Part shown: positions 1-58,042 of the stretch, piece after piece
Layout: each line of letters opens with the position of its first letter
Numbering within the stretch: the stretch's first letter is position 1
Source: Slackia heliotrinireducens DSM 20476
GTDB taxonomy: Bacteria; Actinomycetota; Coriobacteriia; Coriobacteriales; Eggerthellaceae
Reading direction: 5' to 3'
NCBI RefSeq assembly: GCF_000023885.1
Contig: NC_013165.1
Location: forward strand, 1,550,001-1,614,000
DNA length: 64,000 bases
Program-made: the position numbers and the translations under genes
The notes under the pieces: model-generated
The model's input: the letters and a program-made list of their open reading frames with translations, nothing else
What the model was told of the DNA's origin: nothing
Databases searched by the model: none

Positions 1-1707
1 GGTTGCCGGGTTCTTGATACGGTTCGCTTCATCAAGCGCGATGATGTCGAATTCGGACCTATCGTAGAGCTCGATATCACGCCACAGTGCATCGTAGCTG
101 GTCACAAGCACGTCGTGCTCGACAGCGTGAGCGATGTCGAGGGCGCGTTTAGCGCGGGGGCCCACGGCCGCCACCACGTCCATGTCTGGCGCGAAGCGTT
201 CGAACTCTGCCAACCAGTTCTGCACCAACGAGCTCGGGCACACCACCATGCAGGGACGGCTGCGGTTCTTCGTGTTTCGGCGATACACCATGACGACGAT
301 GGTCTGGGCGGTCTTGCCGAGGCCCATCTGGTCGGCCAGAATCGCGCCACCGAACCCGTTCTCCATTCGTGAGTTGAGCCAGGCGAAACCTTCCTGCTGA
401 TATGGGCGCAGCGTGCCGGTAAACGCGATCGGCACCTGGTATTCCGCCTCCTGAACATCCGTTATGCGCGCGAGGTATTCGCCTACGCTGTCGTCGACCT
501 GGGTAGCATATCCCCGGTCGTGTTCGCCGGGTTTCGGCAGAAGCAGAGCCTTGTATCCGGGGAGCTTGGCTTGGCCATCCATCAGGTCATTGTCATCAAG
601 GCCCAGGTCATCGGCTATTTCGTAGACCTGTTGCAACGATTCATCGTCTAGCCTCACGATGCGGCCGTTGGACAGGCGATGGAACTTCTTCTTCAAGCGG
701 TAGGCGTGCAGGATGCGGTTGATGTCCTCGTCAGGCACCTCGTCGCCCGTGATACGCACATTGAGCAGGCCGGATTCGACCGAAACGCCCACCTGCAGTT
801 GCATAGGCGTTGGCTGGCTGATGCGTTTGAACAGATCGGTCACGAACACTTCCCCGAGCCTGGAAAAGTCCTTCACGCCTTCGGTCACGAATTCCATGAG
901 TTGATCGAGCTCCGTGCATTGCTTCAGGAAGAACTCCTCGCCGTCGCAGTGCTCGAAGTCGTGATGGTTAAGAAGCGCATAGGCCTGTTCTTCATGGTCG
1001 CGATCCGGACCTGCAGAAACGGCATCGAGCAGTCCGCGTTTCCTTCCGCCTGAAAGCACGCGGGCGTCGCACCAGATTCTACCGCTGCGGTTAGCGTCGA
1101 AGTAGAATTGCATGACATGCCCCGGATTTCCATCCATGTGCTCAAGCGCCCAAGCGGCGGATGGCGACGGCAGATGGCGCACGTCCCGTACCCAGTCCAT
1201 GGACTGGAACGATTGCCCCTCTTCGGGAACGGTGACGGACAGCGTGCTGTTCCCGAACGGCGATTTGCTGTCGGGGATGCTGATGCGTACCGGTTTAAGC
1301 AGGGGGATGCCGTGTGCCCTGTTTGAGATGAGCATCTCGACCATATGAGGCAACGTGTGCGACAAGGTGTTGTTGTGCCCCTCGAACTCTTCAGGCTTCG
1401 CAACGAACCGCAACGCCAGCGCAACGCCGTAGCTCGACACGTTCTCGGATTTGAATTGGACGTTGTTCACTACCTGAAGCTCTTGCAGAAGGTCGCCCGT
1501 CACGGTGTTGAACTTGACCGCGACAAACGACGGCGTCGCCGCGCTGGCGTTAGGTGCCGTCGCGACAGTGGCCGCGATTACGGTGCACAGCCCCTTGTAT
1601 CCGCAGGACAAGTTTGTAAACAGGGTGAACTTCGTCCTTGAGAGTGCCGACGCTTCGGCGTAGGTCAGCTTGGAAACCTGTTTGCGGATGCGCGACTCGT
1701 CAAGCAT
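1..1707 (-). CDS. SNF2-family DEAD-like helicase, C-terminus cut by window edge
   Basis: This gene starts at 1707 (ATG, AAAGGA upstream) and stays open for 569 codons to the left edge, so the C-terminal half of the helicase is missing. The first 400 or so residues are an uncharacterised N-terminal region without a visible SWIM zinc finger. The SNF2 ATPase follows: Q-like region around residue 430, Walker A DQMGLGKT with Lys465, motif Ia with VVCPSSLVQNW, and motif II LDEANRIKNP at 559-562, with Asn where DEAH proteins have His. Bacterial SNF2 proteins are double-stranded DNA translocases found in stress and defence loci. It faces the same way as the kinase-phosphatase operon at 3159-10433, and its promoter region shares a palindrome with that operon. 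A joint role is inferred. Confidence 0.9.
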   Translation of the reverse strand, partial: MLDESRIRKQVSKLTYAEASALSRTKFTLFTNLSCGYKGLCTVIAATVATAPNASAATPSFVAVKFNTVTGDLLQELQVVNNVQFKSENVSSYGVALALRFVAKPEEFEGHNNTLSHTLPHMVEMLISNRAHGIPLLKPVRISIPDSKSPFGNSTLSVTVPEEGQSFQSMDWVRDVRHLPSPSAAWALEHMDGNPGHVMQFYFDANRSGRIWCDARVLSGGRKRGLLDAVSAGPDRDHEEQAYALLNHHDFEHCDGEEFFLKQCTELDQLMEFVTEGVKDFSRLGEVFVTDLFKRISQPTPMQLQVGVSVESGLLNVRITGDEVPDEDINRILHAYRLKKKFHRLSNGRIVRLDDESLQQVYEIADDLGLDDNDLMDGQAKLPGYKALLLPKPGEHDRGYATQVDDSVGEYLARITDVQEAEYQVPIAFTGTLRPYQQEGFAWLNSRMENGFGGAILADQMGLGKTAQTIVVMVYRRNTKNRSRPCMVVCPSSLVQNWLAEFERFAPDMDVVAAVGPRAKRALDIAHAVEHDVLVTSYDALWRDIELYDRSEFDIIALDEANRIKNPAT

Positions 1708-1765
1708 GATGGATCCTTTCGTGAACGCCCCGAGGGGCTTCTCTTGCGGAACCATCATCCGCTAC

Positions 1766-1788
1766 GCGCAATTCACGAATTGCGCAAT
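1766..1788. promoter_or_regulatory. Palindromic candidate operator upstream of SNF2 gene
   Basis: Within the 233-bp divergent gap 1708-1940, GCGCAATTC (1766-1774) and GAATTGCGC (1777-1785) form a perfect inverted repeat with a 2-bp spacer. It overlaps a second palindrome, ATTGCGCAAT, at 1779-1788. The same 10-mer lies upstream of the VWA operon at 10509-10518 at nearly the same distance from the start codon. No clear -35/-10 pair was identified in the gap. Confidence 0.5.
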
Positions 1789-1940
1789 GCGCCGCCATTC
1801 TGCACGACGAAAATTTCAAGGTTCTGACTTGGGCTGTTAGGCGTACATCAGATTCAGTTCGAAACAAGGTAAGGTTTTGGCCCTGTTTGGAAGCAAGTTT
1901 TACATACGATTCGGCAAGGTTTGACGTGTACGCTGGCACC

Positions 1941-2981
1941 ATGTGTATCTTTATTGGACAGACCGCTATGGATTACTACCGAGCTCATCGCTACGGCGGA
2001 CTCGGTCAGCCCCTTTTTGCCCGCGATGCTAGGCAAGCCGTCGCGTCGAGCAACGCCCATTCCAACATCCTGGATGTCCTAAGTGTAGACCTGCGCAAAT
2101 ATGACATTCTTTGGCCACCTGAGGTTCCGACGGTGCTCGTAACAGACCCGAAGGCAACCCGCAATACCAGCAAGGTGAGCTATCGGCTGTACTCAGAAGC
2201 GATTACTGCCGGGATGATCATCGAACTGGAACGCAATGTGTACATTCCATCTGTGGAATTCCATTTCCTACTATCTGCTAGATACCTGCCACTATGCCAA
2301 CTGGTCGAGCTGGGCTATGAGCTTTGCGGCTGCTACTCTTTGGGTCCGTACGAGAATCCGTTTGCAGACAGGCCCGATCCGCTCACTACACCCTTAAAGT
2401 TGCAACATTTTATAGAAAACCATAAGGGCGTAAAAGGTTCTAGAACAGCCATGCAGGCGGTAAGTAGAATCGCTAGCGGAAGCTGGTCGCCAATGGAATC
2501 GAAGCTTGCGACTTGCATGGCAATGTCCTCCAGGCAAGGTGGATATGAATACGGGTTGCCTAGGTGTAATCATGAAATTCAGCTTTCATCTGCGGAGACT
2601 CCTTTGGATGGCAGACATTCTTTCTATATCGACCTCTTGTTTGTGCATAGGGACAGCCATCAAAAGCTCCATCGGGGTGCACTTGAATACGATGGTAGCC
2701 AACATCGATCTGAGCAGGCCAGAGGCAGGGATCGCGCAAAAACCCATGTGCTGGAAGCGCGAGGAATCGACATCATGCATCTTGCGTTTGAGGATATCAA
2801 TACGTTCAACAAGTTCGACCATCAGATGAAGACGTTTGGAAGAATGATAAAAGTTAAGCGAAACCTGCCCTCGCTGGATGTAATCCAAGCGCGACAGAGA
2901 GTTTACAACACTCTGTTCTCGAAGGCAGGCATGGCAAATCCAGGCGGCTACCAAATTGCTGAGGTCGATGAGGAAGGATAA
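1941..2981 (+). CDS. Hypothetical protein with nuclease-like C-terminal domain
   Basis: The protein has 346 residues from the ATG at 1941. The frame also opens at a TTG at 1887, but the ATG gives the start MCIFIGQTAMDYYR, which looks like a natural N-terminus. The first two thirds match no family I can name. The C-terminal part (about 225-330) reads FYIDLLF, then ALEYDGSQH, then a run RDRAKTHVLEARGIDIMHL. That acidic-strand pattern with a following conserved Glu/Gln-His recalls DUF559/Vsr-like restriction-endonuclease folds. The gene runs opposite to its neighbours and is followed at once by an inverted-repeat element; its TAA stop lies inside the left repeat. It may be cargo that arrived between the SNF2 gene and the kinase operon. 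The nuclease assignment is weak. Confidence 0.6.
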   Translation: MCIFIGQTAMDYYRAHRYGGLGQPLFARDARQAVASSNAHSNILDVLSVDLRKYDILWPPEVPTVLVTDPKATRNTSKVSYRLYSEAITAGMIIELERNVYIPSVEFHFLLSARYLPLCQLVELGYELCGCYSLGPYENPFADRPDPLTTPLKLQHFIENHKGVKGSRTAMQAVSRIASGSWSPMESKLATCMAMSSRQGGYEYGLPRCNHEIQLSSAETPLDGRHSFYIDLLFVHRDSHQKLHRGALEYDGSQHRSEQARGRDRAKTHVLEARGIDIMHLAFEDINTFNKFDHQMKTFGRMIKVKRNLPSLDVIQARQRVYNTLFSKAGMANPGGYQIAEVDEEG

Positions 2982-3117
2982 GCGCCTTTTTTGCATCTAC
3001 TGACCCTCTGAAAGCATTTTGGAGTTGATTATTGACCCTTGAAGGGCCCAAAGCACAACAGTTCAACCCAAAACGACCTTCCAAAGGCGCCTCGGATGCA
3101 AAAAAGGCGCTTATCCT
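2975..3117. repeat. 143-bp element with perfect 23-bp terminal inverted repeats
   Basis: AGGATAAGCGCC-TTTTTT-GCATC (2975-2997) is the exact reverse complement of 3095-3117. Inside, a second imperfect pair occurs (TTTTGGAGTTGA near 3016 and TTCAACCCAAAA near 3061), as do two direct TGACCCT copies. The unit lies between convergent genes and includes the stop codon of the upstream one. It is too long-looped for a usual terminator and looks like a MITE-like or REP-like element, although read-through in either direction would give an oligo-U-flanked stem. Confidence 0.6.
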
Positions 3118-3158
3118 ACCTCAAGCATGATTTAGATTTGGTAATGAGTCGTTCGAGC

Positions 3159-4622
3159 CTAGTCCAAACCATGGTCGCGGAGCCAGGCTTTGGCGATGCC
3201 GAAGCCGATGCGGCCCGAGGCCTCGTCGTCGCGGGCGGATTCCCGGATCCATTCAATGCCTTTGGCCTGGTTGCGGTCAACGCCGTCACCCTCGTACAGC
3301 ATGACGCCGAATGCGTTCTGAGCCAGGATATTGCCCTGTTTAGCCGCTTGGCTGAACAACACGGCAACCCTTTGCGGGTCGCGAGGCAGGCCGCCCAACC
3401 CGTCACGAATGCAAAGCCCCAGGTAATACATTGCCGACGTGTTGCGCTTTGCCTCCTGCTGCATGAATATGGGCACAGCCTTGTCATACATGCCGCAGTT
3501 AAAATAATCCAGCGCATCGATGAACTCGTGGTCTTCCTCGGTGTCGAACTGTGGGTAAGCAACAGTTTCGGCATCAGTGTCGCTGCGGACGTAGCTCAAC
3601 AATGCGTCTGTGAAGAGCCTGTACTCATAATCATCCTTGTTGAGCGGCAGCATCGATTCGAGCGCATCAGGCAACACCCGTACTTTGGGGTCTACGGCAA
3701 GCCCGGCATCCACAGCACGCGAGATGCGTGCGTCCATGGATACGAGAGAATCGGACACTGCGGCCTGCAAATCGGAATCCGATGCAACCTCGCCGAAAGA
3801 TTCGAGAAGTTCCTGACGTACCTTGCCATATAGGCGTGAAACGAAATCCTCGTCGTGGTACAGGCTGCCAAGCGGTGAGTAATCGTCAGCATAACCTGGG
3901 CATATGCCATTAGCGAGCATGGCGTAGAGCGTGGCGCACATGCTGTAGGTATCTGCTTTCAGGCCGCTTGAGGGCATCTGCGTATCGACATCGGCGAACA
4001 TCTGCTCCGGGGCCGCAAAACCGAAAGTGCCCACCGACTCGGAGTTGACGCGCTCATCCTTGCACAGCCCGAAGTCCAGCAGACGCGCCTGCCCGTCGGC
4101 GTTGATGACGATGTTGTCGGGCTTGATGTCGCGATGCGGTATTTGCGTACGGGAGTTGCAGGCGTTCGAGCCGAACCTGACGATCGGTTTGATGTAGGCT
4201 AGCGCCTGCTCGCAGGTCAGTGCAGAGCATGCATCTGGATCGCTCAGAAGCGCACCCAGATTGGTTCCCTCGATGAGCTCCATGACCACCGCAGAGTGGA
4301 GGTCCAGGTCAACAGCCTTATGAAGGGCCAGACCATAGGCGTAGGGACGTGGAACCGTCAGGTCGTTCTCGTGCAGGCGGAGCGCCTGCCACTCGGTTTC
4401 GGCATCGTCCTTATTGGCGTACATCTTGAGAGCGTACCTGCGCCCGTCCAGACTGACGGACAGCACCTGCGCCTGGCCGCCCTTGCCCAGCTCGGCATCG
4501 AGAACGAATCCAAGCCGGCCGTCGAGCAGGGAAAACTCGTCGCCCGACATTCTATCGACGAAGAACACGATATCAGGTTCACTGGTGGGTGATTTCGGCT
4601 GCGGTGTTTGGGTCGGACGCAT
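3159..4622 (-). CDS. Ser/Thr protein kinase with C-terminal Sel1-like repeats
   Basis: This 487-residue protein is an active-looking Hanks-type kinase. Visible motifs are the glycine loop GKGGQAQV (46-53), Lys66 in ALKMY, the catalytic loop HRDIKPDN (163-170) and DFG (183-185), followed by GTFGFAAPEQ as activation segment and APE motif. Residues from about 385 to 470 carry Sel1-type repeats (AMYYLGLCIRDG, AQNAFGVMLYEGDG), a scaffold for protein contacts. There is no membrane segment, so it should act in the cytoplasm. It is the last gene of the six-gene minus-strand operon, 9 bp after the FHA gene, with AGAGGAC before the ATG. The FHA neighbour suggests a phosphothreonine-dependent partner; substrates are unknown. 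Confidence 0.9.
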   Translation of the reverse strand: MRPTQTPQPKSPTSEPDIVFFVDRMSGDEFSLLDGRLGFVLDAELGKGGQAQVLSVSLDGRRYALKMYANKDDAETEWQALRLHENDLTVPRPYAYGLALHKAVDLDLHSAVVMELIEGTNLGALLSDPDACSALTCEQALAYIKPIVRFGSNACNSRTQIPHRDIKPDNIVINADGQARLLDFGLCKDERVNSESVGTFGFAAPEQMFADVDTQMPSSGLKADTYSMCATLYAMLANGICPGYADDYSPLGSLYHDEDFVSRLYGKVRQELLESFGEVASDSDLQAAVSDSLVSMDARISRAVDAGLAVDPKVRVLPDALESMLPLNKDDYEYRLFTDALLSYVRSDTDAETVAYPQFDTEEDHEFIDALDYFNCGMYDKAVPIFMQQEAKRNTSAMYYLGLCIRDGLGGLPRDPQRVAVLFSQAAKQGNILAQNAFGVMLYEGDGVDRNQAKGIEWIRESARDDEASGRIGFGIAKAWLRDHGLD

Positions 4623-4631
4623 GTCAGTCCT

Positions 4632-5921
4632 CTATTTCGCCGCGTCGATCAAAGCGCTTACGTGGCGCTTGTCCTGCTCGCGGATGACAGTCTCAGCATC
4701 CAGGCAATATGCGAAACGTAGCAGGGCGCTTTCAGAATACGGTCCGAATTCGGCGCCCAGATAGCCGCAAACAATCTCGTCGCCGGGTTCCAGGCGCTCG
4801 ACTGGCGACGCCTGTACATATGCGTCGTCGCCCCTGATGAACGTACCGTTGCTGGAATCCAAATCGTAGACGTACCAACGGCCGCCGTCGCACAGCACCA
4901 TGGCGTGGATACCGGAAGCTCCGCCGTTCGCATCAGAAAGCTGGAGCACCTTGGTACGTCGATTCTCGGTCAGGTGGCTGAATTTGAGCTTCTTGACCTT
5001 CGCCTTGTAGTCGTCGGCCTTTCCGTTTCGCCCGATGAATACCACATCGGCATCGGAGAAGGTTCCCATGACGCCGTGCAACCCAGGGGCCCCGTCGAAC
5101 ATCTGGATCAAGGCAATGCTCTTGGCGTCGGCAGGCAGGACGTCGCTTTCCGAAGAGCCGATAACATTTGCATCGGTGACCTGGTAGTTCGGCGGCAGCG
5201 CGGCTTTAGACGACGGGCCGTAGATGACAGCTGAAACCATCCGCTCGATAAGCACGTCGAATACGCTTCCCAAAGAAGGCTTTCCGCCACGCACGGGCGA
5301 CGGTATCTCTACCATATTGTTTGCGTCCATGTCGCGCAGCAACGCCTCGATGCCGTTGGCAAAGGCGTCGATTTCGAATTCTCGGTACCGCTCGGCGCGG
5401 AAGCCCAGCCGCATGGCAGGCAGGATTTCGTCTTCCAACGTTTCCTTCAGGTTGTAGATCCCCTCGAGCGAATCCTTCAGGTACATGAAGCGACAGGCCA
5501 GATCGTCCTGGTCCGCGTCCAGGCTCTCTACTGCGATGCCTGCGAGGCGCGCCACAGTCGCATGTGGGTCGCGCAGCATGACAGACGCATTGCGCAGGGC
5601 GGTCGCGGACTTCCCCACCCCGCCGGCGCCCAGCCAGCATTCCTCAAAGGCTTTGGGCTTGTCGGCAGCCTTCCAGATGTTGGAAAGTCGCGATTTGGAT
5701 TCGAAACGGTCAGTGTTGTTGAATATGGCTGTGGCCAGCAGTTTTGCTGACAGCTTATAGTCGTGGTACGGGTTGTATTCCTCATAGTCGCCGCTGCTCG
5801 ACATGCCCGAAAGGCCGGCGAAGCGTCCGTAGCCGGTAGAGATCTTGCCCAGAGTTTCGCAGAAGGCCTGCAGGCCTGAGTAACATATTTCGATTTCAGG
5901 GTTCATGCTTTTAACGGACAT
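4632..5921 (-). CDS. FHA-domain protein
   Basis: The 429-residue protein starts at 5921, where GGGAGGCG precedes ATG by seven bases. The frame is open upstream to 6005, but that part overlaps the preceding kinase gene and lacks a ribosome site. Residues 1-290 are unassigned and mostly helical in appearance; GAGGVGKS at 98-105 resembles a P-loop but lacks the usual preceding hydrophobic strand and may be chance. The C-terminal FHA domain (about 293-390) has VVFIGRNGK, His339 and DLDSSNGTF (353-361), with PGDEIVCG after it. FHA domains bind phosphothreonine peptides, so this protein is the likely reader of the operon's kinases. It may be dephosphorylated by the PP2C partner. Confidence 0.88.
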   Translation of the reverse strand: MSVKSMNPEIEICYSGLQAFCETLGKISTGYGRFAGLSGMSSSGDYEEYNPYHDYKLSAKLLATAIFNNTDRFESKSRLSNIWKAADKPKAFEECWLGAGGVGKSATALRNASVMLRDPHATVARLAGIAVESLDADQDDLACRFMYLKDSLEGIYNLKETLEDEILPAMRLGFRAERYREFEIDAFANGIEALLRDMDANNMVEIPSPVRGGKPSLGSVFDVLIERMVSAVIYGPSSKAALPPNYQVTDANVIGSSESDVLPADAKSIALIQMFDGAPGLHGVMGTFSDADVVFIGRNGKADDYKAKVKKLKFSHLTENRRTKVLQLSDANGGASGIHAMVLCDGGRWYVYDLDSSNGTFIRGDDAYVQASPVERLEPGDEIVCGYLGAEFGPYSESALLRFAYCLDAETVIREQDKRHVSALIDAAK

Positions 5922-5985
5922 CGTGCGCCTCCCTTTCGTTTTCTGAAATTGTATCAGACGGCGCACGTGAAACCTGGCTCGACGG

Positions 5986-6711
5986 CTAGGCGACATGTGC
6001 TCCAATCAACACCTGAAACGCCTGGTTTGCACGAATGAAGCGCTTGCGGGGGTCGGGGTCTATGCAGCATGCAAGCCAACGGCCCAGTCGGGTGTCGGGA
6101 AGCAAGTTGGGGCTCAGACGGCGTCCGTATCGCGCGGCTACCAGCCCCAGTGCCAGCATGTACAGGTCGGCCTGCTCCAGGCTCAGCGCGGCGTTGGGGC
6201 TGTAGCCGTTGCGGAGCAGCCCCGGGTTGTACGGACCGCCCGTGGTACAGCTGATACCCAGATCGATTATCTTCAAACCTGTTGGCGTGAGCATGATGTT
6301 TCCGGGATGCAGGTCGCGATGGGCCAGCCCGCATCCGTGGAGCACCGACAGCGCGAGGGTGGCGTGCTTGGCGTATTCCAGGGTCTTGCGCTCGCCCAGA
6401 TGGCGGGTGGATTCGATGACGCTCTTGAGGGAATGGCCCTCAAGCAGCTCCATAGCCATGCAGAGGTTACCGTTGAGCTGCGGATACTTCTCGGAGAATA
6501 TGCGCTTGCAGGAATAGACCTCGGGAAAGTACGCGCTGCCGGAAACGGTCTGCAGGGCTCGGTACTCGTGCATGAGTCCGCGCTCGTCCGAACCGCTCGA
6601 ACCGCCGTCCACCTTGAGGGCGACGGTCCGGCGCAGCTCGGAGTCGTAGGCGCGGTAGAGCCTGGCGTATCCGCCGACGGCGAAGGGGGTCGGGCTTTCC
6701 AGGGTCAGCAT
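5986..6711 (-). CDS. Short Ser/Thr protein kinase
   Basis: At 241 residues this is a bare kinase domain without sensor or membrane part. Motifs seen are Gly-rich VGGYARLYRA (12-21), Lys33 in VALKV, catalytic loop HRDLHPGN (131-138) and DLG (150-152) in place of DFG. The catalytic-loop Lys is His here, as in some lipopolysaccharide- and aminoglycoside-kinase-like enzymes, so activity is likely but substrate class is uncertain. The segment after DLG is short and lacks a clear APE motif. GGAGACGG precedes the ATG, and the gene follows the YegI-like kinase gene by 9 bp. It is the third kinase of the same operon, which is unusual. Confidence 0.85.
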   Translation of the reverse strand: MLTLESPTPFAVGGYARLYRAYDSELRRTVALKVDGGSSGSDERGLMHEYRALQTVSGSAYFPEVYSCKRIFSEKYPQLNGNLCMAMELLEGHSLKSVIESTRHLGERKTLEYAKHATLALSVLHGCGLAHRDLHPGNIMLTPTGLKIIDLGISCTTGGPYNPGLLRNGYSPNAALSLEQADLYMLALGLVAARYGRRLSPNLLPDTRLGRWLACCIDPDPRKRFIRANQAFQVLIGAHVA

Positions 6712-6720
6712 GGCCGTCTC

Positions 6721-8292
6721 CTAATACGAGGTGACGATTTCCATCAGGAAGTTCGCCGCCATGCCCGCGAGGTCCAGAACCAAGCCGCCGATCAGGGCGA
6801 AGAACTCCCCTGCGTAGCTTAGGAACGAGGGTTCGACGGCGTACACGACGAACAGGAAGAACAGTGCGGCGAAGACGCCTGCCTTGGCCAGGTCCTTGGA
6901 GAACATGGTGAACAGGTACAGCGCCAATACGCCGACGATGACGGCTTCCATAATCAACACCTCCAGGTCGGTTTCCAACAGAACTGCTACATCGTTCCAG
7001 TTCAGGGCGAAATGCAAGGCCACCGAAGCGAGCATGACCGCGATGACCATCTTGACCGCCAGGGATATGCTATGCGAAGCGGGCTCCATGCATTTCGCAA
7101 TCTGCGTCCGCACGCCCTCGCGCATGCCGTCGATCGCCTTGCGGGCATCGCGCCTGGTTCGCTGCAGCGCCTGGGAGCGCTTCTCACGGGCGGCCTTGCG
7201 TTCCTGGTCAAGCTTGAGCCTTGCGGCTTCGCGCTGCTCGCTACGCTCCTGAATCCGTTCCTCCACGGTGTGCCACTTGGTGCGGATGGCTTCGGCGAAC
7301 TGCCCGGTGGCATCAGTCAAGCGTTCGCCGTCCAAAGGGTTTGCGATGGCCTTGCCTTTGCGGCTGCGCTTCGACCCGCAGTTCGGACAGGCCGCAAGCA
7401 TGTTCGAGTGCTCGAATCCGCAGTTCGAGCAGCACGTGAACTTGGCGTTCAACAGCTCGTTGAGAGCATCGCGCAGCTCGGTCGGCGAAGGCATGGGCCC
7501 GCTCCGCGCGAATGCGCGCTCGAAACATTCGGCCAGGTGCGGCCCGTATGTGTTGACCGGAAGCGCACCCGGGATGCGTTTGTAGGCGAAGTCGCGGTTC
7601 AGGGTGTGTTCGATGCGGGCGTCTACGGGATCCACGTCGGACTCGCGACACTCGAAAGGATGCTCGCCCAAAAACAGCAGCTGGAACACGGCCACTGCAA
7701 GCAAAAACCAGTCGCTCTGGGGCGTGAGCACCACGGCCCCTTCGCTTCGTCCGAGCATCTCAGGCGACTTCTCACGGGATTCGGTGGCTGGGTAGACCAC
7801 GTGGGCAATTCGGTCCTTGACCTGGAAGGAGTCTGCGTCGAGCATCCACATCTGACGCTCTTCCGGATCGAAGACCACGTTTGCCAGCGACAGGTCGCCC
7901 ACCACAAGATCGGCGTCGTGAGCCGCAATGACGCTCTCGCACAGCATGCGTGCGAGCATGACGCGGAAGCTGGGCGAGACCTGGTCGGAGTGGCTCAGTC
8001 GGTTCAGGGACACGCCTTTCACACGCCGCATCAAGTAGCCTGCCCATGCGCCTTGAGAATCGTAGACGTTGCCCTTCGGCAACACCAACATGGAGACGTG
8101 CCCGTCGGCCAAGAAACTGTGGTCGATAAGCCACTGGACCTTGCGGCGGCGGCCTTCGCTCCGAAACATCGGGTCGACGATCTTGCAGACGCAGGACGGC
8201 TGGCCGTCGACTTCGAACACGAAGCCGCGACCACCGTTGTCCATGCAGGTCAGAGCCAGGTTCTTACCGTCTTCTGAGAAGTAGGCGGGCAT
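6721..8292 (-). CDS. YegI-like protein kinase with zinc ribbon and membrane anchor
   Basis: The 523-residue protein has a divergent kinase domain of the type found in TerY-P triads. Lys37 lies in VCKIVD, the catalytic loop reads VVGDLSLANVVF (Asp133, Asn138, no HRD His or Arg) and the metal-binding motif is DADSFQV rather than DFG, which is characteristic of this subgroup. A zinc ribbon with CSNCG and CPNCG follows near residues 307-326, then a charged coiled coil (about 350-400) and three hydrophobic segments up to the C-terminus. It should therefore be tethered to the membrane with the kinase inside. AAGGAG lies eight bases before the ATG. The PP2C gene is 21 bp upstream. Together with the VWA protein these form the core triad. 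Confidence 0.88.
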   Translation of the reverse strand: MPAYFSEDGKNLALTCMDNGGRGFVFEVDGQPSCVCKIVDPMFRSEGRRRKVQWLIDHSFLADGHVSMLVLPKGNVYDSQGAWAGYLMRRVKGVSLNRLSHSDQVSPSFRVMLARMLCESVIAAHDADLVVGDLSLANVVFDPEERQMWMLDADSFQVKDRIAHVVYPATESREKSPEMLGRSEGAVVLTPQSDWFLLAVAVFQLLFLGEHPFECRESDVDPVDARIEHTLNRDFAYKRIPGALPVNTYGPHLAECFERAFARSGPMPSPTELRDALNELLNAKFTCCSNCGFEHSNMLAACPNCGSKRSRKGKAIANPLDGERLTDATGQFAEAIRTKWHTVEERIQERSEQREAARLKLDQERKAAREKRSQALQRTRRDARKAIDGMREGVRTQIAKCMEPASHSISLAVKMVIAVMLASVALHFALNWNDVAVLLETDLEVLIMEAVIVGVLALYLFTMFSKDLAKAGVFAALFFLFVVYAVEPSFLSYAGEFFALIGGLVLDLAGMAANFLMEIVTSY

Positions 8293-8313
8293 GATGCGCT
8301 CCTTGCGGGTCGG

Positions 8314-9414
8314 TTAGATTGACTGAAACAGATTGCGGATACGGGTCAGCGGGCTTTTACGATTGCGGCAGATGCGGCGCGCCACGGCAGGGTTCACCTT
8401 GGCGTAGACGGCCTGCTCGTAGAAAGGCCACTCGTTGCGGACATCCACCGAGTCGCTCCAGACCAGAACCACCGTACGGTCGTCGTCCACTAGGTCGAAG
8501 AGCCCCGGCAGCGGATCGGGCCCGGGTTCGGGCATGGACGGTTCAGCTCCTTCGATGGGTATGGAACGAGCTTTGCTGCGGGCCGCATACGTTTCGGTGT
8601 AGCGTTTCGCGTAGGGACGGTTCGCCGCATGGGTTTCGCCCGGAGCTGCCGGTAGTTGCATGGACCCAGCCTGGAGTTTCGCCGGGTCGTACGCCTGCAG
8701 TGCGACAGGATCCGAAGGCTTCACCAGGGCCGGCGCCTTGAAAATGTCGTCCATGCGCGCGTCCACCTGTGATTGGGTCCACCCCACCGGGTAGGACAGC
8801 AGGTTCTCCCCTTCGAAGCTCACTTCCTGGGTGCCGTGCTCCTGGTTGTACGAGGCTATGCAGTCGCCGATGCCGTCGGTTGCCACGTAAAACGACTGCA
8901 CAAGTTCGATGTGCCCGAAACGCCAATGATCGCAGTCGAGCACCATGAAGGTCTGGTTGGCGTTATCGCCTTTCTGCGGCTGTTCAACCATGAAACACTC
9001 TCCCGCCTGGTTGACGGCGAATCCCCCGTCGCCAACGTAGCCGTAGAACAAATCGCCCGTCTTGACGTTGTAGGCGGCCACCATGAGCGTGGTACCCAAA
9101 TCGCCCAGGTTCCAGCCGTGGTCCAGCTTCGCCTTCTGCAACGCGTTGAACGCGGCTCCGAAGCCAGCTTGAACGGCGGGCATCGCAGTGTAGAGAAACG
9201 CCTCCCTGTCGCATACGATGGTCGAGCATGCCGCAGCGTACGCGGCGCTGCAGGCAATCTCGGCCGCCTGCTCGCCCAGGGCCTCGCCGCCCATGCCGTC
9301 AGCCACCGCCAGGACCACTACATCGTTCGAGCAAACCATCTTGACGCGGTCCTGGTTCGGAAGGCCCTCGGCCCTATGGGAAAGGCCGGTTTCGGACATC
9401 TTGTAATACAGCAT
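8314..9414 (-). CDS. PP2C-family Ser/Thr protein phosphatase
   Basis: The 366-residue protein starts at 9414 with MLYYKMSETG and AGAAAGG upstream; longer readings overlap the VWA gene. PP2C motifs are clear: NQDR (20-23), VADGMGG (37-43), a GYVGDGGF segment and VATDGIGD (about 200-207). These residues bind the two-metal centre used to hydrolyse phosphoserine and phosphothreonine. The C-terminal 100 residues, with a Pro-rich stretch and TVVLVWSDSVDVRN, lie outside the core fold. It sits between the VWA gene (23 bp upstream) and the YegI-like kinase gene, the order of the TerY-P triad. Its likely role is to reverse the kinases of the operon. Confidence 0.92.
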   Translation of the reverse strand: MLYYKMSETGLSHRAEGLPNQDRVKMVCSNDVVVLAVADGMGGEALGEQAAEIACSAAYAAACSTIVCDREAFLYTAMPAVQAGFGAAFNALQKAKLDHGWNLGDLGTTLMVAAYNVKTGDLFYGYVGDGGFAVNQAGECFMVEQPQKGDNANQTFMVLDCDHWRFGHIELVQSFYVATDGIGDCIASYNQEHGTQEVSFEGENLLSYPVGWTQSQVDARMDDIFKAPALVKPSDPVALQAYDPAKLQAGSMQLPAAPGETHAANRPYAKRYTETYAARSKARSIPIEGAEPSMPEPGPDPLPGLFDLVDDDRTVVLVWSDSVDVRNEWPFYEQAVYAKVNPAVARRICRNRKSPLTRIRNLFQSI

Positions 9415-9437
9415 GAACGTGCCTTTCTCTAATGGGG

Positions 9438-10433
9438 CTAGGCGATGATCTGCCATACGCTCTGATCCACGCCAAGGGCGCCGATTTCGGCGAGGGCGGC
9501 CTCGTTGCCCTTGTACTCGACGTTGGGGTTGGAACCCACGTTGCTGGAACGCTTGGCGATCAGGTCGGAAATAAAGCGCCAGCAATCCACGTCGTCATAG
9601 GTCTCGCCCACGTGCTTGATGGCGTGCATGACCTCGTAGGATTTTCCGTTCGCCTTGCTCACCTTGGTGGTCTTGGGACCAAGCGCCCGCAGCAGGTCGT
9701 CGTCCACGTTGCCGAAGCCGATGACGAACATGTTGGTCTTAGACGTTCCGACGCGGTGCAGGATCTCCTGCTTCAAACTTTCGGACAGGTCTTCCTGATA
9801 GCCTTGTGCGTCGGTGTTCTGGGCATCCGTTGCGATGATCTCCAGGCTGGAGGCGCGCATGAGGTGCTTCGCGTCCTGATCGGCCTTCAGGCGGTCGATG
9901 GCGGCGAAATCGCTACGGACCACGCCTTCAAGGTCGGTGCAGCCGCTGGTGTCGATGTGGCCGAAGCCGGCGGCCTTGATGCGTTTAGCCTCTTCCAGAT
10001 CGCAGAAGGGGATGATCTCGCGCTGTCCTCCGTTGAACAGGACCACGCGGATGTTGTAATGGTACCCCTTGTCAAGCGACGCCTTGGTCAGCTCCTGGAA
10101 GATGGCGTCCAGGCCCTTGTCGGCGAAATAACGCACGCCTTCGGGCGGGACCGATGCGCTCATGTCGATGGCGATGTTGACGTTGACCTCCTTGGCAACG
10201 CGGGTGTTGCCGGCCGCATAGCGGCGATACGGCTGCTCGTAGCAGGTGGCAGACGCTTGGATTGCAGTGTTCGGAACAGCCAGGTTCGCAAGCACCTGCG
10301 TGTTGCCGCTCACGTTGTCCCAACCGGCGTTTCCACCAGCCAGAAGCTCGGTAGGACCACCTGCGGGCACCATGCCGTAGGATTGGTCGTCGCCGCCGAG
10401 TCGGTGCCAGATTTTGTTTCCGAAAATGCCCAT
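9438..10433 (-). CDS. VWA-domain protein, TerY-like
   Basis: This first gene of the operon begins at 10433 (GGAGGAACA before ATG) and encodes 331 residues. The metal-ion-dependent adhesion site is visible as DMSAS (90-94), Thr166-Asp167 in SGCTDLEG, and ATDAQ with Asp203. The N-terminal 80 residues include a Gly/Asn-rich region. No signal peptide or membrane span is seen, so it should be cytoplasmic. VWA proteins of the TerY group act as metal-dependent assembly platforms and are encoded with a PP2C phosphatase and a kinase. Here the same trio leads an extended set with FHA and two more kinases. The gene is divergent from the cydDC-like pair. Confidence 0.9.
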   Translation of the reverse strand: MGIFGNKIWHRLGGDDQSYGMVPAGGPTELLAGGNAGWDNVSGNTQVLANLAVPNTAIQASATCYEQPYRRYAAGNTRVAKEVNVNIAIDMSASVPPEGVRYFADKGLDAIFQELTKASLDKGYHYNIRVVLFNGGQREIIPFCDLEEAKRIKAAGFGHIDTSGCTDLEGVVRSDFAAIDRLKADQDAKHLMRASSLEIIATDAQNTDAQGYQEDLSESLKQEILHRVGTSKTNMFVIGFGNVDDDLLRALGPKTTKVSKANGKSYEVMHAIKHVGETYDDVDCWRFISDLIAKRSSNVGSNPNVEYKGNEAALAEIGALGVDQSVWQIIA

Positions 10434-41744: not shown

Positions 41745-42016
41745 TTCGGAAAGAAGCATCATCGGCAGAAGCAGAATGCCGCATCGAAAAGATTGTTCAT
41801 GGCCTAAAACATGTTGATGCTTCTGCTTGTGAACGAGGCCGTGTCTGGTCACCTGCCTTCTCGCTCTGCAACTTTTCCCGAAATTTTCTTGGGTATATTC
41901 GCAACAACTGAGGAGTGGCGCTCGGGCGGCTCCCAAGTCGTACACTACGGGAAATTCTTGGCGCAGAAGGGGGTTTTGGCCGAAAGAAGTGGGCAGACCG
42001 CGGCCACAGATACAGC
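41745..42016. other. Intergenic stretch without a supported gene
   Basis: Short frames here lack ribosome sites and coding bias. I see no repeat or structured element before the terminator at 42017. Confidence 0.6.
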
Positions 42017-42042
42017 AAAAAGCCAGGGAACATTCCCTGGCT
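42017..42042 (-). terminator. tRNA-style terminator left of the island border
   Basis: Minus-strand AGCCAGGGAA and TTCCCTGGCT form a perfect 10-bp stem followed by TTTTGC. It lies 10 bp downstream of the CCA end of the tRNA fragment, the same layout as at the intact tRNA-Asp, but in unrelated sequence. Confidence 0.85.
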
Positions 42043-42046
42043 TGAT

Positions 42047-42092
42047 TTCAGATGGCGGGATGTACGAGACTTGAACTCGCGACCTCCGACGT
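42047..42092 (-). repeat. Attachment-site copy: 3' half of tRNA-Asp
   Basis: These 46 bp are identical to 21482-21527, covering 6 bp of downstream flank, the encoded CCA, acceptor 3' strand, T arm, variable loop and 3' anticodon stem. Identity stops inside the anticodon loop, where the next base differs (the triplet would read GTT), and the 5' half of a tRNA is absent. Crossover in the anticodon loop or T arm is usual for tyrosine-integrase elements. With a minus-strand tRNA the inserted element lies on the higher-coordinate side of this fragment. Confidence 0.8.
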
Positions 42093-42118
42093 AACAGTTG
42101 GTTGAGCGGGTGGGAACG

Positions 42119-42302
42119 GATGGTTTCAAATAGTGTGCAATGTGCGCTTGAACAGGGTAAACTGTGAACAGATGGTTTCAAACGGAATCGAAAAGATTCG
42201 CGCGTTGGCTTAGCATTGGCTTAGGATTGGCTGAATTGAAAAGGTGGTCACGAATTCTGACCCGATTGGCTTAGCCGAAAAGGTAGTCACGAATGAATGA
42301 CG
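42119..42302. repeat. Cluster of short direct repeats next to the attachment site
   Basis: GATGGTTTCAAA occurs at 42119-42130 and 42171-42182. TTGGCTTAG occurs at 42205, 42216 and 42266. Units 42225-42263 and 42264-42302 are 39-bp tandem copies sharing GATTGGCT, GAAAAGGT and GTCACGAAT. They could be integrase arm-type sites or debris of insertion-sequence ends. No gene is supported between 42093 and 42352. Confidence 0.5.
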
Positions 42303-42352
42303 ACCGCTTACGCGAGAATTAATCGATTTCCCTGTCGAAAGAGAGCGTTGAT

Positions 42353-42667
42353 ATGTGCATGAATGCAGACTGGAATCACCTACGGGAAGAGCACGAGATA
42401 GCTTATCTGCGAGCCGATATTTGCCTGGGCTCTCCTCAGTCTTATAGCCTGGAAGAAAAGCGTCAAATCTACGAAGACATGGATGCCAGCACGAAGGCCA
42501 TTGATGCTGCAATGCGTGCAGACTTCTGGTCCATGCCGGCTGAAGTAAGAAGCCGCCTCCTCGACATGCTTGGTTCTTCAGGTTGCGAGACAAGGCAGTG
42601 GTGGGAAGATTTACTGGGCGCCCATCCGAGCGATTTGTCGCAAGAGAATCGAATGACGTTCCAGTAG
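42353..42667 (+). CDS. Small hypothetical protein
   Basis: The 104-residue protein has ATG codons at 42353 and 42359 and a moderate GAGAGCG upstream. It is acidic and helical in appearance, with two Trp-rich patches (FWSMPAEVR, RQWWEDLLG). No family is recognised. It is the only plus-strand gene in this part of the island and lies convergent to the TPR/cold-shock gene. It may be cargo or a regulator of the neighbouring pair. Confidence 0.45.
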   Translation: MCMNADWNHLREEHEIAYLRADICLGSPQSYSLEEKRQIYEDMDASTKAIDAAMRADFWSMPAEVRSRLLDMLGSSGCETRQWWEDLLGAHPSDLSQENRMTFQ

Positions 42668-42788
42668 CGTTGGCTCAAAGCATGCAAACAAGGCGGTTAA
42701 GCAACCGACTGCCTATGGAAATTGAGGGCGGAGATCATTCTCTCCGCCCTTCATTTACTGACTATTTCTTTGCGCTGGTCAACTAGGC

Positions 42789-45041
42789 TCAATCAATAAT
42801 TTCCGTAACTCTCCAACCCCAACGATTCTTCTTTCGATCCCATGATTTCTCCGCGACAAAATCGATAGTCTTGTAATCAGTCAGGTGATGCAGTTCGATG
42901 AGTTTGGCTGGCACATAGTACTCATCGCCCGTATTCTCGTCTTCTACAAAGCCAAAGTCTTTCTTGGCATATCGGCTTCTTGCAAATTGGAACCTGCCAG
43001 TTCCTTTGAGCTTATAGCTGTCTTCCTCTGCTTCAGCTCCAAGTTCAAGAGTTGTCGCTTCCCACTCCCATGTCCCTTTGACCAAAGCTGACTTCGGTGG
43101 CTTGTAGGTCTTGCGACATGATCCGCTAGCTTGCTGGAACTGCTTTGCCTGCTTACCATCGAGCAGTGCGGGCGAAACCCAAACCCGCATTTGCCTTGAA
43201 TTGACAAATCCGAAGTTTTGAACGAGATCGATTTGACCTGAGTACGTGGACGTAAATTGCTTGGCCATCGTGGCCTCAGGAAAAGGCTCAATCGCGCCAA
43301 TTATTGATTTATGCTCTGAACCGAAGCGACCACGATAGCATAAGCCATTGGAAACGCATGATGCTATGTCTTCCCGCTTTACAGCGATGCGGAAATAGCA
43401 ATCGCGCGAAGGGTCATCCACGACGATATGTGCAAGGTTTTGGTCCGCTATTACCTTGTCGACATAGAACTGGGTCCAGGGCAATTCCTCAGCAACTAGC
43501 TCAGTTGCTCCCTGGGAAAGCTGGGAATATAGCAATTCGTTGCTATCTACTGATTCAGTATTAGCGAACCAATCCTCTTGCTTCAAAATGCCTGCGCCCT
43601 CAGAGGTGCGCCATCCGTTTGCTTCACATAGCTTATCCAATAGAAGAACCTCGGCTTTCGCCTCTGGGTATCTACCGGTACGAGCAAACAAAACCGCTGC
43701 ATCTTCGTGGAGGCTGCGCGAGAATTGGTCGTTATTCGAAATGGATAACCCCATGAAAAGGCATTTCTCGTAATTATCTGGAGCTTCCGTTTCCCATGTT
43801 TTTGCATATGCTCGCCAAGCCCATGGCTCTGTCTGACTCTTGGCCACGATTGGGGCAAGCCTTTCACGAGCCTCAGAATACCTGCCCACTTCGCAGAGAA
43901 GCTTTCCGAGCTTATACGGTTCCCATATCCAATCGGAACACCTCGGGTCGTCGAGTAAAGGTATCACCCGCTCGCACCCAGCGTTTTTAATCTCGATAGT
44001 GGCGATTGGATTTCCAGAAGCGTCGTTAGACATCAGGGCGTCAAGATATGCTTTGACCAAGTCCTGCGCATGGGAAGGCATTTGCTTGCCCTCGTACTCC
44101 CTCGGCTGGAATGCGTCGCGATCGAGAGCATCAAGACCGTACCATTCTACGAGCTGCAACACATCAACGGGTCTTTCCTGCAGGCTGACGAAGAACATGG
44201 TCAGCACTTCTTGACGATGCAAGGCTGTACCTCGCCCCCAGTGAACAGCTTCGTTGAGCATTTCTTCGATTTGGCCAAGGCTCTTTCTCTCTCGGAGCTT
44301 CCATCCTATGCCCGCAAACTTTCCCGCTGCATATGCAGCGGCCTCGTGCGTATCGAACACGTCCGGGATAATCGCTCGGATGGCTGAAAGGGTGTAGATG
44401 AAACCGCGAAGGTTCATGCCATTCCCTTGCTCGTTGCCAGCGTATGACTTCAGGTCATCGTAGAAAGCCCACGCAAGTGCGTTGCCTGCGATTTCGCTTG
44501 GCACTCGCACCTGGGTCTGGCCGGAAACGATAGCGGACCATGGAGCGTCTGCAATTCCCAGCCATCTCACAACAGCAGATGATTGATCGTATGGTTTTAG
44601 GCAAACAATCAGCATCCTAGCAATGTCCTCCGTGTAAAGTGGAGACCTCGGTCGCCAGAGGCATATTTCGCTGCAAAGGATTTGCAGGTCGTTGATCTTG
44701 TTGTTCTTCCTGAGCGCCCATCCCACTTTGAGAACGTGCTTTTCGAGGTTTTCAACGAACATCTCATCTCGAGACGGATTTGTTGGAAACTTCCGAATTT
44801 GCGCGAGGACACTGCAATATGCCCGAATATCACCACAGAACTTTGTATTGGTCTCGTAGTATCGCTTCAAGCAGTCGTACAGAACCCACGTGTACGCTTG
44901 CATGAACGTCTCTTCTCTATTACCTCGTGAGTAATAGCTTTTCGCAAGGTTATATGCGTCTTTGAGCTGACCGCCTTTTCGCAGATCGGTGATCCTGCTA
45001 GCCTCTTCACTCGGCTCGTATCTTCTGCTTCCGTAAGCCAT
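42789..45041 (-). CDS. TPR-repeat protein with C-terminal cold-shock-like OB domains
   Basis: The 750-residue protein starts at 45041 with GGCGGAG upstream, 25 bp after the helicase gene. Residues 1-500 are helical with TPR-like repeats (for example GKLLCEVGRYSEARERLAPI). Near residues 595-640 a cold-shock-like segment reads TSTYSGQIDLVQNFGFVNSR; a second one near 665-745 has GTGRFQFARS, KDFGFVEDENTG and YYVPAKLI. FGFV is the RNP-1-like core of nucleic-acid-binding OB folds. It should be cytoplasmic and bind RNA or single-stranded DNA. Operon pairing with a NERD helicase suggests a defence or RNA-quality-control system. No catalytic domain is seen. Confidence 0.75.
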   Translation of the reverse strand: MAYGSRRYEPSEEASRITDLRKGGQLKDAYNLAKSYYSRGNREETFMQAYTWVLYDCLKRYYETNTKFCGDIRAYCSVLAQIRKFPTNPSRDEMFVENLEKHVLKVGWALRKNNKINDLQILCSEICLWRPRSPLYTEDIARMLIVCLKPYDQSSAVVRWLGIADAPWSAIVSGQTQVRVPSEIAGNALAWAFYDDLKSYAGNEQGNGMNLRGFIYTLSAIRAIIPDVFDTHEAAAYAAGKFAGIGWKLRERKSLGQIEEMLNEAVHWGRGTALHRQEVLTMFFVSLQERPVDVLQLVEWYGLDALDRDAFQPREYEGKQMPSHAQDLVKAYLDALMSNDASGNPIATIEIKNAGCERVIPLLDDPRCSDWIWEPYKLGKLLCEVGRYSEARERLAPIVAKSQTEPWAWRAYAKTWETEAPDNYEKCLFMGLSISNNDQFSRSLHEDAAVLFARTGRYPEAKAEVLLLDKLCEANGWRTSEGAGILKQEDWFANTESVDSNELLYSQLSQGATELVAEELPWTQFYVDKVIADQNLAHIVVDDPSRDCYFRIAVKREDIASCVSNGLCYRGRFGSEHKSIIGAIEPFPEATMAKQFTSTYSGQIDLVQNFGFVNSRQMRVWVSPALLDGKQAKQFQQASGSCRKTYKPPKSALVKGTWEWEATTLELGAEAEEDSYKLKGTGRFQFARSRYAKKDFGFVEDENTGDEYYVPAKLIELHHLTDYKTIDFVAEKSWDRKKNRWGWRVTEIID

Positions 45042-45066
45042 CGCTCCGCCTTAGTGTCGTTTTGGG

Positions 45067-47967: not shown

Positions 47968-48038
47968 CCACGTCAAATGATGGTTTCAATTATAAATGAT
48001 TGCGAGGTCAAGTTGGTTTCTGCTTGAGATGGATGCTT

Positions 48039-55916: not shown

Positions 55917-56014
55917 GAGTGTTTTGCCTTTCAACTTGCAGACTGCACAAGTCCATCTGCCCAGTTAGTTACAAGGCAAGAGTACTGTCATGTCGCAAAG
56001 TGGAATGAGGTCAG

Positions 56015-56785
56015 CTAGTCCGCCGTGCCGTTCTTGATGTGGTAATCGATACCATGACTAGCGCAGAACTCGATTACCTTTCGCGCCGATTCGTTGTAGA
56101 ACGCCTTGGCGTCTGCGTATTCGTTCGCACGCTTGTCGTAATGCACGCGGCCAAAAACAATTCGGTCAACGAAGGAGACCCTTTCGAGGATGATGTCGAG
56201 ATCTTGTTCGCATATGTTGGGCGTTGGATATGGCTCCATGCTTATCCAGGTCTTGCAACCGGCTTCGCCAAGCGCCTTCAACGATTCAAGCCTATCTTCG
56301 ATGCACGCTGCTCCTGGTTCCATATCTTTACGGAATATCTCAGACAGCGAAACGAGAGTGATGCCGTACTGATTAATCTTTGGCAGCTCAGTAAGTGATT
56401 TGGGAAGCACGCCTTTGGTAAGCACGACGCAAGGTATGCCATAGCTATTGATAAGCTTGATTGCCTCGACGCTCATTTGCTCAACATCTGGGTATCCCAT
56501 CATGAACGGATCGGTGGTGAAGCAGAGCTGAACCTGTTTGATCTCGTCCTTGTGTTTCGGTAATTCCTTCTTGAGCAAATCGATAGTATTGTCGACAATT
56601 GAAGGGCGTAGCCAGTCTTCGTAAGTCTTCACGCGCCCGAAACGCCGCGCCATCATGAATGCATAACACGGATATAGGCAGCCGTGAGTGCATCCCTGTA
56701 CGTGGTTCATTGCCCAATCGCCGTACTCAACCTTTGTTTGGTAGAGCATGGTTTTACGCGTGATATGTCCTAGTCCTTGATCCAT
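56015..56785 (-). CDS. Radical SAM protein of the TcmP-associated (Gp37/Gp68-like) type
   Basis: From the ATG at 56785 the protein has 256 residues; a TTG at 56821 adds 12 but lies on a TATAAT box. The cysteine cluster GCTHGCLYPCYAF is the CX3CX3C-like [4Fe-4S] site of this branch. Further motifs are CFTTDPFMMGY, VVLTKGVLPKSL and WISMEPYPTPN. Relatives occur in phages and defence-linked loci beside TcmP. Here the gene follows TcmP by about 30-66 bp on the same strand. The reaction is unknown; it is perhaps a nucleic-acid or peptide modification. Confidence 0.8.
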   Translation of the reverse strand: MDQGLGHITRKTMLYQTKVEYGDWAMNHVQGCTHGCLYPCYAFMMARRFGRVKTYEDWLRPSIVDNTIDLLKKELPKHKDEIKQVQLCFTTDPFMMGYPDVEQMSVEAIKLINSYGIPCVVLTKGVLPKSLTELPKINQYGITLVSLSEIFRKDMEPGAACIEDRLESLKALGEAGCKTWISMEPYPTPNICEQDLDIILERVSFVDRIVFGRVHYDKRANEYADAKAFYNESARKVIEFCASHGIDYHIKNGTAD

Positions 56786-56851
56786 CCAGCCTATATCAGT
56801 TTCGTCGTTGTTGCTTGTCAATTATAAATACAGCTCGCAAAGTGCCTTTCC

Positions 56852-57997: not shown

Positions 57998-58042
57998 GCA
58001 TCTTCCAATTGGTCGTATTTCTTGATGTCAGGTGCAAAGTGA

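What the first reader, a model, noticed from the sequence alone, without database searches (positions are those of the whole stretch)
1..10433. Extended TerY-P-like phospho-signalling cluster linked to a SNF2 helicase
Six co-directional genes encode a VWA protein, a PP2C phosphatase, a YegI-like membrane kinase, a second kinase, an FHA phosphothreonine reader and a Sel1-repeat kinase, with a SNF2 translocase downstream on the same strand. The VWA/PP2C/YegI-like core corresponds to the known TerY-P triad. Three different kinases plus a reader plus a SNF2 helicase in one locus go beyond that triad. A model is a metal- or stress-sensing kinase relay that licenses the SNF2 translocase, possibly as phage defence.
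Basis: partly seen in the sequence, partly recalled or inferred. Interest (0 to 1): 0.75.

Follow-up and report, generated by a model that had tools for sequence, protein, structure and literature searches.

The report
Six-gene protein-phosphorylation switch in Slackia
A rumen bacterium carries a six-gene operon that adds two more kinases and a phosphate-reading protein to a known kinase-phosphatase-metal-binding trio; a distant relative keeps the same six genes in shuffled order, so the set looks like a real unit, but the neighbouring helicase does not belong to it.

Summary
The window's genome (3,165,038 bp) has the size published for Slackia heliotrinireducens. Six tightly packed minus-strand genes (10433-3159) encode VWA, PP2C, a membrane kinase with zinc ribbon, a small kinase (KIN2), an FHA protein and a kinase-Sel1 protein (SEL1K). 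SNF2 is on the same strand, but 1400 nt away behind an opposite-strand nuclease-like gene. The first three genes are a divergent TerY-P-type triad (order as in plasmid triads, kinase tree 100/99, profile matches 98.4% and 99.95%). The set is not a chance neighbourhood: Slackia piriformis has all six (27-44% identity) with blocks [VWA-PP2C-kinase-KIN2] and [FHA-SEL1K] swapped and other flanks. G767 (same family) has the triad beside a SEL1K-family kinase, another kinase and an FHA protein. A MAG of another family has the four-gene block alone. Four of five more distant triads in the order sit with FHA plus kinase-RyR genes. SNF2 is unlinked: relatives in 11 of 12 Slackia genomes, module in 2, and about 644 kb apart in S. 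piriformis. Best reading: a membrane-anchored write/erase/read phospho-switch derived from TerY-P, with no effector of its own; stress or phage defence undecided. New variant of a known kind.

The parts
9438..10433 (-). VWA protein, TerY-like (331 aa); MIDAS residues D90, S92, S94, T166, D203 kept in the four relatives aligned
8314..9414 (-). PP2C phosphatase (366 aa), metal-binding aspartates kept
6721..8292 (-). TerY-P-type (YegI-like) kinase (523 aa): kinase domain, zinc-ribbon-like CxxC...CxxC, charged linker, C-terminal hydrophobic segments
5986..6711 (-). KIN2, small soluble Ser/Thr kinase (241 aa), HRDLHPGN loop intact
4632..5921 (-). FHA protein (429 aa from the ATG at 5921 with a Shine-Dalgarno-like GGGAGG; ORF open to 6005): N-terminal region without a known family plus C-terminal FHA domain
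3159..4622 (-). SEL1K, Ser/Thr kinase with C-terminal Sel1 repeats (487 aa)
1887..2981 (+). Not part of the module: DUF2726 / MTES_1575 REase-like protein gene between the operon and SNF2
2969..3123 (.). Not part of the module: 46-nt inverted repeat (80%), possibly a two-way terminator between the convergent genes
1..1758 (-). Not part of the module: SNF2 helicase (907 aa in full; continues outside the window)

Best explanation
The six genes form one operon for a membrane-anchored protein-phosphorylation switch built on a TerY-P-type triad. Shown: the six families, active-site residues kept, hydrophobic segments on the triad kinase, tight co-directional packing, and conservation as two blocks, [VWA-PP2C-triad kinase-KIN2] and [FHA-SEL1K], whose order is exchanged in S. 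piriformis. Inferred: the metal-binding VWA protein assembles with or gates the membrane kinase; the triad kinase and KIN2 write phosphothreonines; the PP2C protein erases them; the FHA protein reads them and brings SEL1K (Sel1 repeats as docking surface) to the membrane complex, which relays or amplifies the signal to cell proteins. No effector enzyme is encoded, so output is either phosphorylation of house-keeping clients or assembly of the complex itself. SNF2 is not a partner.
For: Operon packing. All six genes in S. piriformis, co-directional, blocks swapped, 27-44% identity, different flanks. Quartet in G277 with a KIN2 that groups with those of Slackia. G767: triad, a divergent SEL1K-family kinase, and a convergent group of FhaA_N protein, second PP2C, kinase-Sel1 and FHA protein. 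Kinase tree: triad kinases 100/99, KIN2 of three genomes 100/99. FHA-kinase neighbours recur: relatives of the Slackia FHA protein lie (convergently) next to kinase-RyR genes in G375, G286, G239; triad + FHA + kinase-RyR in G015, G182, G281, G341. FHA domain within 15 kb of 7 of 9 triads in the order, chance 1.6e-7; by genus 4 of 6, 1.8e-4.
Against: Only two genomes have exactly these six genes; G277 lacks FHA and SEL1K on its 18-kb contig, and G030 has a bare triad. The SEL1K group (94/96) also holds kinases that have no triad beside them, and within it the G767 kinase falls with those of G207/G222 (84/71), not with the Slackia SEL1K pair. The 15-kb limit was set after seeing distances of about 11 kb; within 10 kb the count is 4 of 9. 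The FHA proteins beside the g48, G341 and G767 triads match the Slackia FHA protein over little more than the FHA domain. No biochemical or expression data; no convincing promoter found. The AlphaFold model of the FHA protein was too poor to use (pLDDT 42).
Confidence: 0.65

Rival explanations
1. An anti-phage system of TerY-P type: as for TerY-P triads that stop phages, infection triggers the kinases and the phosphorylated state stops infection; the extra kinases and FHA are sensors or signal boosters.
For: The triad matches TerY-P triads by order, profile and tree; TerY-P protects Pseudomonas aeruginosa, with activity against Autographiviridae (PMC10889362, passages), and is described as acting against T7-like phages (PMC7699616, passage). 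Patchy distribution, 4 of 395 genomes of the order with this VWA type, and different flanks fit an accessory gene set. In the window the neighbours include an SNF2 helicase, whose part in the window matches PADLOC profiles such as ZorD and DpdE (general helicase similarity), and a REase-like protein with a weak hit to candidate PDC-S37 (E 4.5e-5).
Against: Named Pfam hits among the flanking genes scanned in Sp, G767, G277 and the far side of SNF2 are transport, metabolic or housekeeping; the window beyond 14138 was not scanned. No relative in the phage records (triad kinase) or viral contigs (VWA and FHA, narrow patterns). The TerY-P-like modules shown to act alone carry an OB-fold on the kinase (PMC11090510, passage), not hydrophobic segments.
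Confidence: 0.3
2. Two independent functional units, the quartet and the FHA-SEL1K pair, that merely tend to sit together.
For: Blocks are swapped between the two Slackia species; G277 has the quartet alone; FHA relatives occur beside kinase-RyR genes with no triad found in the 13-19 kb read around them.
Against: Both blocks are adjacent in both Slackia species at 27-44% identity, and FHA plus extra kinases recur beside triads in other genera.
Confidence: 0.2
3. One reading: the kinase relay licenses the SNF2 translocase, all seven genes being one unit.
For: Same strand and next on that strand.
Against: 1400-nt gap with an opposite-strand gene and an inverted repeat; SNF2 relatives in 11 of 12 Slackia genomes, module VWA in 2 of 12; in S. 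piriformis SNF2 lies at 894-896 kb, the module at 1541-1548 kb.
Confidence: 0.03

Closest known systems
TerY-P triad (VWA + PP2C + Ser/Thr kinase)
   Same: VWA-PP2C-kinase in that order; MIDAS motif kept; kinase in the same clade as plasmid triad kinases; zinc ribbon after the kinase domain in the window's protein (definition from PMC11090510, passages)
   Different: Kinase ends in hydrophobic (membrane) segments; two further kinases and an FHA reader in the operon; no TerY_C domain; S. piriformis lacks the zinc ribbon
Actinobacterial kinase-PP2C-vWA sets beside GAP1-N2 GTPases (PMC7159879, passages)
   Same: Active kinase fused to zinc ribbon or TM helices, PP2C and stand-alone vWA in adjacent genes, actinobacterial
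   Different: No GAP1-N2 GTPase recognised among the neighbours scanned; FHA and two more kinases not mentioned in the passages read
Type VI secretion threonine-phosphorylation pathway (PpkA kinase, PppA PP2C, Fha reader; recalled)
   Same: Logic of membrane kinase, PP2C eraser and FHA reader
   Different: No T6SS genes recognised among the flanking genes scanned; the TagH model reaches 20.6 bits against a cut-off of 120.25
TerY-P in Type II/III-A CoCoNuTs (PMC11090510, passages)
   Same: TerY-P triad used as part of a larger operon
   Different: No CoCoNuT-type genes recognised among the flanking genes scanned

Membership tests
TerY-P triad | VWA protein with intact MIDAS motif DxSxS...T...D | tested here: met
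   D90, S92, S94, T166, D203 invariant in four relatives; profile match to seven VWA proteins of other triads 98.4%, E 5.6e-15
TerY-P triad | Adjacent PP2C phosphatase | tested here: met
   PF13672, E 1.8e-24; gap 23 nt
TerY-P triad | Ser/Thr kinase of the triad clade, with C-terminal zinc ribbon | tested here: met
   Profile match 99.95% over kinase and CxxC region, tree 100/99, two CxxC pairs in the window's protein and in G277. S. piriformis has none and G767 one CxxC
TerY-P triad | Gene order VWA-PP2C-kinase | tested here: met
   Same order in the window and in plasmid records L065, L067, L069; L066 the same with its VWA annotated hypothetical; the fifth opened, L068, has the kinase hit upstream of VWA-PP2C. 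Order is not universal: G341 has kinase-VWA-PP2C
TerY proper | TerY_C domain (PF15616) | tested here: not met
   Only hit in the genome is at 467944-468093, below the cut-off, not in the module
TerY-P anti-phage system | Protection against phage | not testable with these tools
   Needs plating assays; PADLOC gave no TerY hit, but on known plasmid triads it gave one marginal TerY hit (E 0.0018) and none for PP2C
GAP1-N2 system | GAP1-N2 GTPase gene next to the triad | tested here: not met
   No such Pfam hit among the adjacent genes scanned
T6SS threonine-phosphorylation pathway | Linked T6SS structural genes | tested here: not met
   None among flanking genes scanned; the rest of the genome was not searched for T6SS

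The most novel reading that the evidence does not exclude
Probability: 0.4. Interest if true: 0.65.

Novelty: new variant of a known kind. Interest (0 to 1): 0.45.

Why it matters
TerY-P triads occur in many bacteria and some stop phages, but what they phosphorylate and who reads the mark is not known to me. A version that carries its own reader and extra kinases in one operon gives a self-contained set in which writer, eraser, reader and relay can be tested in vitro. The FHA-kinase cassette, with Sel1 or RyR domain, predicts how the triad is wired to different partners.

Tried and rejected
SNF2 as partner: rejected. Defence database labels: hits of KIN2 and SEL1K to PD-T4-6, mad6 and the like are generic kinase similarity, as are those of SNF2 to helicase profiles; PADLOC did little better on two known plasmid triads, so its silence on the VWA and PP2C says nothing. 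FHA protein fold: AlphaFold on two sequences gave pLDDT 42; no fold search was made with it and the second structure job was not used. PDB sequence searches with the triad kinase (E up to 0.01) and the VWA protein (E up to 0.1) found nothing.

These used narrow peptide patterns and do not show absence elsewhere. Viral contigs with VWA and FHA alignments: none. Plasmids: VWA none, FHA none, triad kinase 19 records, SEL1K 127 records (15 listed, kinase-level similarity), operon DNA none. Phages, triad kinase: none. Phylum sample with the VWA profile, 6 of 396 genomes, of which 4 are weak matches.

Not in print: papers searched with the terms did not list a VWA-PP2C-kinase-KIN2-FHA-Sel1 kinase operon; the library holds only open-licence papers, and the paper that I recall as founding TerY-P (Anantharaman 2012) is not held, so this is a weak negative.

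Dropped before counts: genomes G305 and G347 (weak VWA hits; no triad gene found by tblastn) and the second VWA hits of G182 and G277 were left out; G563 and G553 belong to another family of the phylum and were left out. The own genome's SEL1K paralogue at 1094176 was used only in the tree.
Full report
What is there. The window belongs to a single-contig genome of 3,165,038 bp, the size given for Slackia heliotrinireducens RHS 1T (PMC3035243, passages read); the species name is inferred from that. On the minus strand, from 10433 down to 3159, six genes follow with gaps of 23, 21, 9, 64 and 9 nt: VWA, PP2C, a YegI-like kinase, a 241-aa kinase (KIN2), an FHA protein and a kinase with Sel1 repeats (SEL1K) (Pfam). 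The triad kinase and the VWA protein are divergent: Pfam gave no kinase hit for the first and a below-cut-off hit for the second.

The SNF2 gene. It lies on the same strand but starts at 1758 and runs out of the window (907 aa). Between it and SEL1K are 1400 nt with a plus-strand gene for a DUF2726/MTES_1575 REase-like protein (1887-2981) and a 46-nt inverted repeat. SNF2 relatives are found in 11 of 12 Slackia genomes, whereas the module's VWA gene is in 2 of these 12. In S. piriformis the SNF2 relative is at 894-896 kb and the module at 1541-1548 kb. SNF2 is therefore a neighbour, not a part.

The triad. tblastn of the kinase against 72,556 plasmid records hit 19. I opened five neighbourhoods: L065, L067 and L069 have VWA-PP2C-kinase in that order (VWA and PP2C annotated), L066 has the same with its VWA annotated as hypothetical (hit by the S. 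piriformis VWA at E 0.001), and L068 has the kinase hit upstream of VWA-PP2C. Profile comparison gave 98.4% (E 5.6e-15) for VWA and 99.95% (E 1.3e-37) for the kinase including the CxxC region. In a tree of 24 kinase domains the 11 triad kinases form one group (100/99), and those of the window, S. piriformis, G767 and G277 a sub-group (100/99). The VWA metal site D90-S92-S94-T166-D203 is kept. TerY_C is absent.

Active sites. In both Slackia species the triad kinase keeps K37, GDLSLxN and D152/D154; KIN2 keeps K33, E49, HRDxHPGN and D150; SEL1K keeps K66, E77, HRDIKPxN and DFG; the PP2C keeps its DG and GD aspartates and DDRT. The FHA domain keeps GR, S..H and NGT; which of these residues do the chemistry or touch phosphothreonine is recalled. 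So the six proteins look functional by sequence.

Conservation of the six-gene set. A class-wide search with the VWA protein gave 3 of 396 genomes; a family-wide profile search added G767 (192 bits; 4 of 138 genomes with a match, one of them weak). An order-wide search with a profile built from these four VWA proteins matched 11 of 395 genomes: the four themselves above 400 bits, by construction, and seven others at 49 bits or less. In S. piriformis YIT 12062 (G072, named through) the six genes are present and co-directional, but as FHA-SEL1K-VWA-PP2C-kinase-KIN2: the blocks [VWA-PP2C-kinase-KIN2] and [FHA-SEL1K] are exchanged. Identities are 27-44%. The flanks differ: an ABC ATPase gene by Pfam, with EcfT- and DedA-like genes read by eye. 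In G277 (MAG RUG13628, another family) the quartet stands without FHA or SEL1K on an 18-kb contig; its KIN2 groups with those of Slackia (100/99, long branch). In G767 (same family) the triad lies beside a divergent SEL1K-family kinase and a convergent group of an FhaA_N protein, a second PP2C, a kinase-Sel1 and an FHA protein. That SEL1K-family kinase groups with kinases of two Slackia genomes that have no triad (84/71) rather than with the Slackia SEL1K pair, so it is a family match, not a shown ortholog. A class-wide search with the FHA protein matched 67 of 396 genomes, mostly over the FHA domain alone.

Wider pattern. Among the weak VWA matches five are ordinary triads: G030, G015, G182, G281 and G341. 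In four of them (G015, G182, G281, G341) an FHA protein is followed at once by a kinase-RyR protein (HRD[LV]RxxN loop in those of G015, G182, G341 and G375; 33-37% identical between genera); G030 has a bare triad. Relatives of the Slackia FHA protein in G375, G286 and G239 lie convergently next to the same kinase-RyR family, with no triad found in the stretch read; in G363 a kinase gene lies 1.3 kb from it beyond one other gene. An FHA domain lies within 15 kb of 7 of 9 triads (chance 1.6e-7), or 4 of 6 genera (1.8e-4). The 15-kb limit was chosen after seeing the distances; at 10 kb it is 4 of 9. FHA proteins beside the g48, G341 and G767 triads share little more than the FHA domain with the Slackia protein.

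How it most likely works. Inference from families: membrane kinase plus VWA as sensor-writer, KIN2 as second writer, PP2C as eraser, FHA as reader bringing SEL1K. It resembles in logic the T6SS PpkA-PppA-Fha pathway (recalled). Whether it serves defence is open: TerY-P protects Pseudomonas aeruginosa with activity against Autographiviridae (PMC10889362, passages) and is described as acting against T7-like phages (PMC7699616, passage). Against that, no defence island was recognised around it (only SNF2 and the REase-like gene in the window could be read so; the window beyond 14138 was not scanned), and its kinase has hydrophobic segments where the TerY-P-like kinases shown to act alone have an OB-fold (PMC11090510, passage).

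Novelty. The triad is known; a kinase with zinc ribbon or TM helices beside PP2C and vWA in actinobacteria is known (PMC7159879, passages). I found no description of the six-gene set or of the FHA-kinase cassette in the searches listed, which cover open-licence papers only.

Noticed in passing
window 1887-2981 (+): Opposite-strand gene for a DUF2726/MTES_1575 REase-like protein between the operon and SNF2; its 3' end lies inside a 46-nt inverted repeat whose 21-nt core occurs only in these two arms within the window.
   Followed up: partly
L059:299-7118 and L060:5673-12847 (two other Slackia genomes): Four-gene sets: a protein with no Pfam family (595-663 aa), two SEL1K-related kinases in tandem and an OmpA-family protein, suggesting an envelope link of the SEL1K family.
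   Followed up: partly
L086:3163-16339: Triad followed by a TrwB/VirD4-like ATPase, a transglutaminase-like protein, a 1010-aa FHA protein and a kinase-RyR protein.
   Followed up: partly
L035:10286-11905, L088:1951-4515, L086:14813-16339: A kinase-RyR protein family in Coriobacteriia that lies next to FHA proteins.
   Followed up: partly
L064:1061-2458: FhaA_N-domain protein at the head of the second phospho-gene group in G767.
   Followed up: no
L061:8045-8755: SprT-like metallopeptidase-looking protein (HELLH motif, CxxC pairs) just upstream of the G277 triad; judged by eye.
   Followed up: no
G000:C1:1707244-1709115: A second SNF2 relative in the own genome, outside the window, with one in-frame TAA in the matched stretch.
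   Followed up: no
window 42001-48000 and 56001-62000: G+C drops to 46-52% against 60.2% published for the genome; possible foreign DNA.
   Followed up: no
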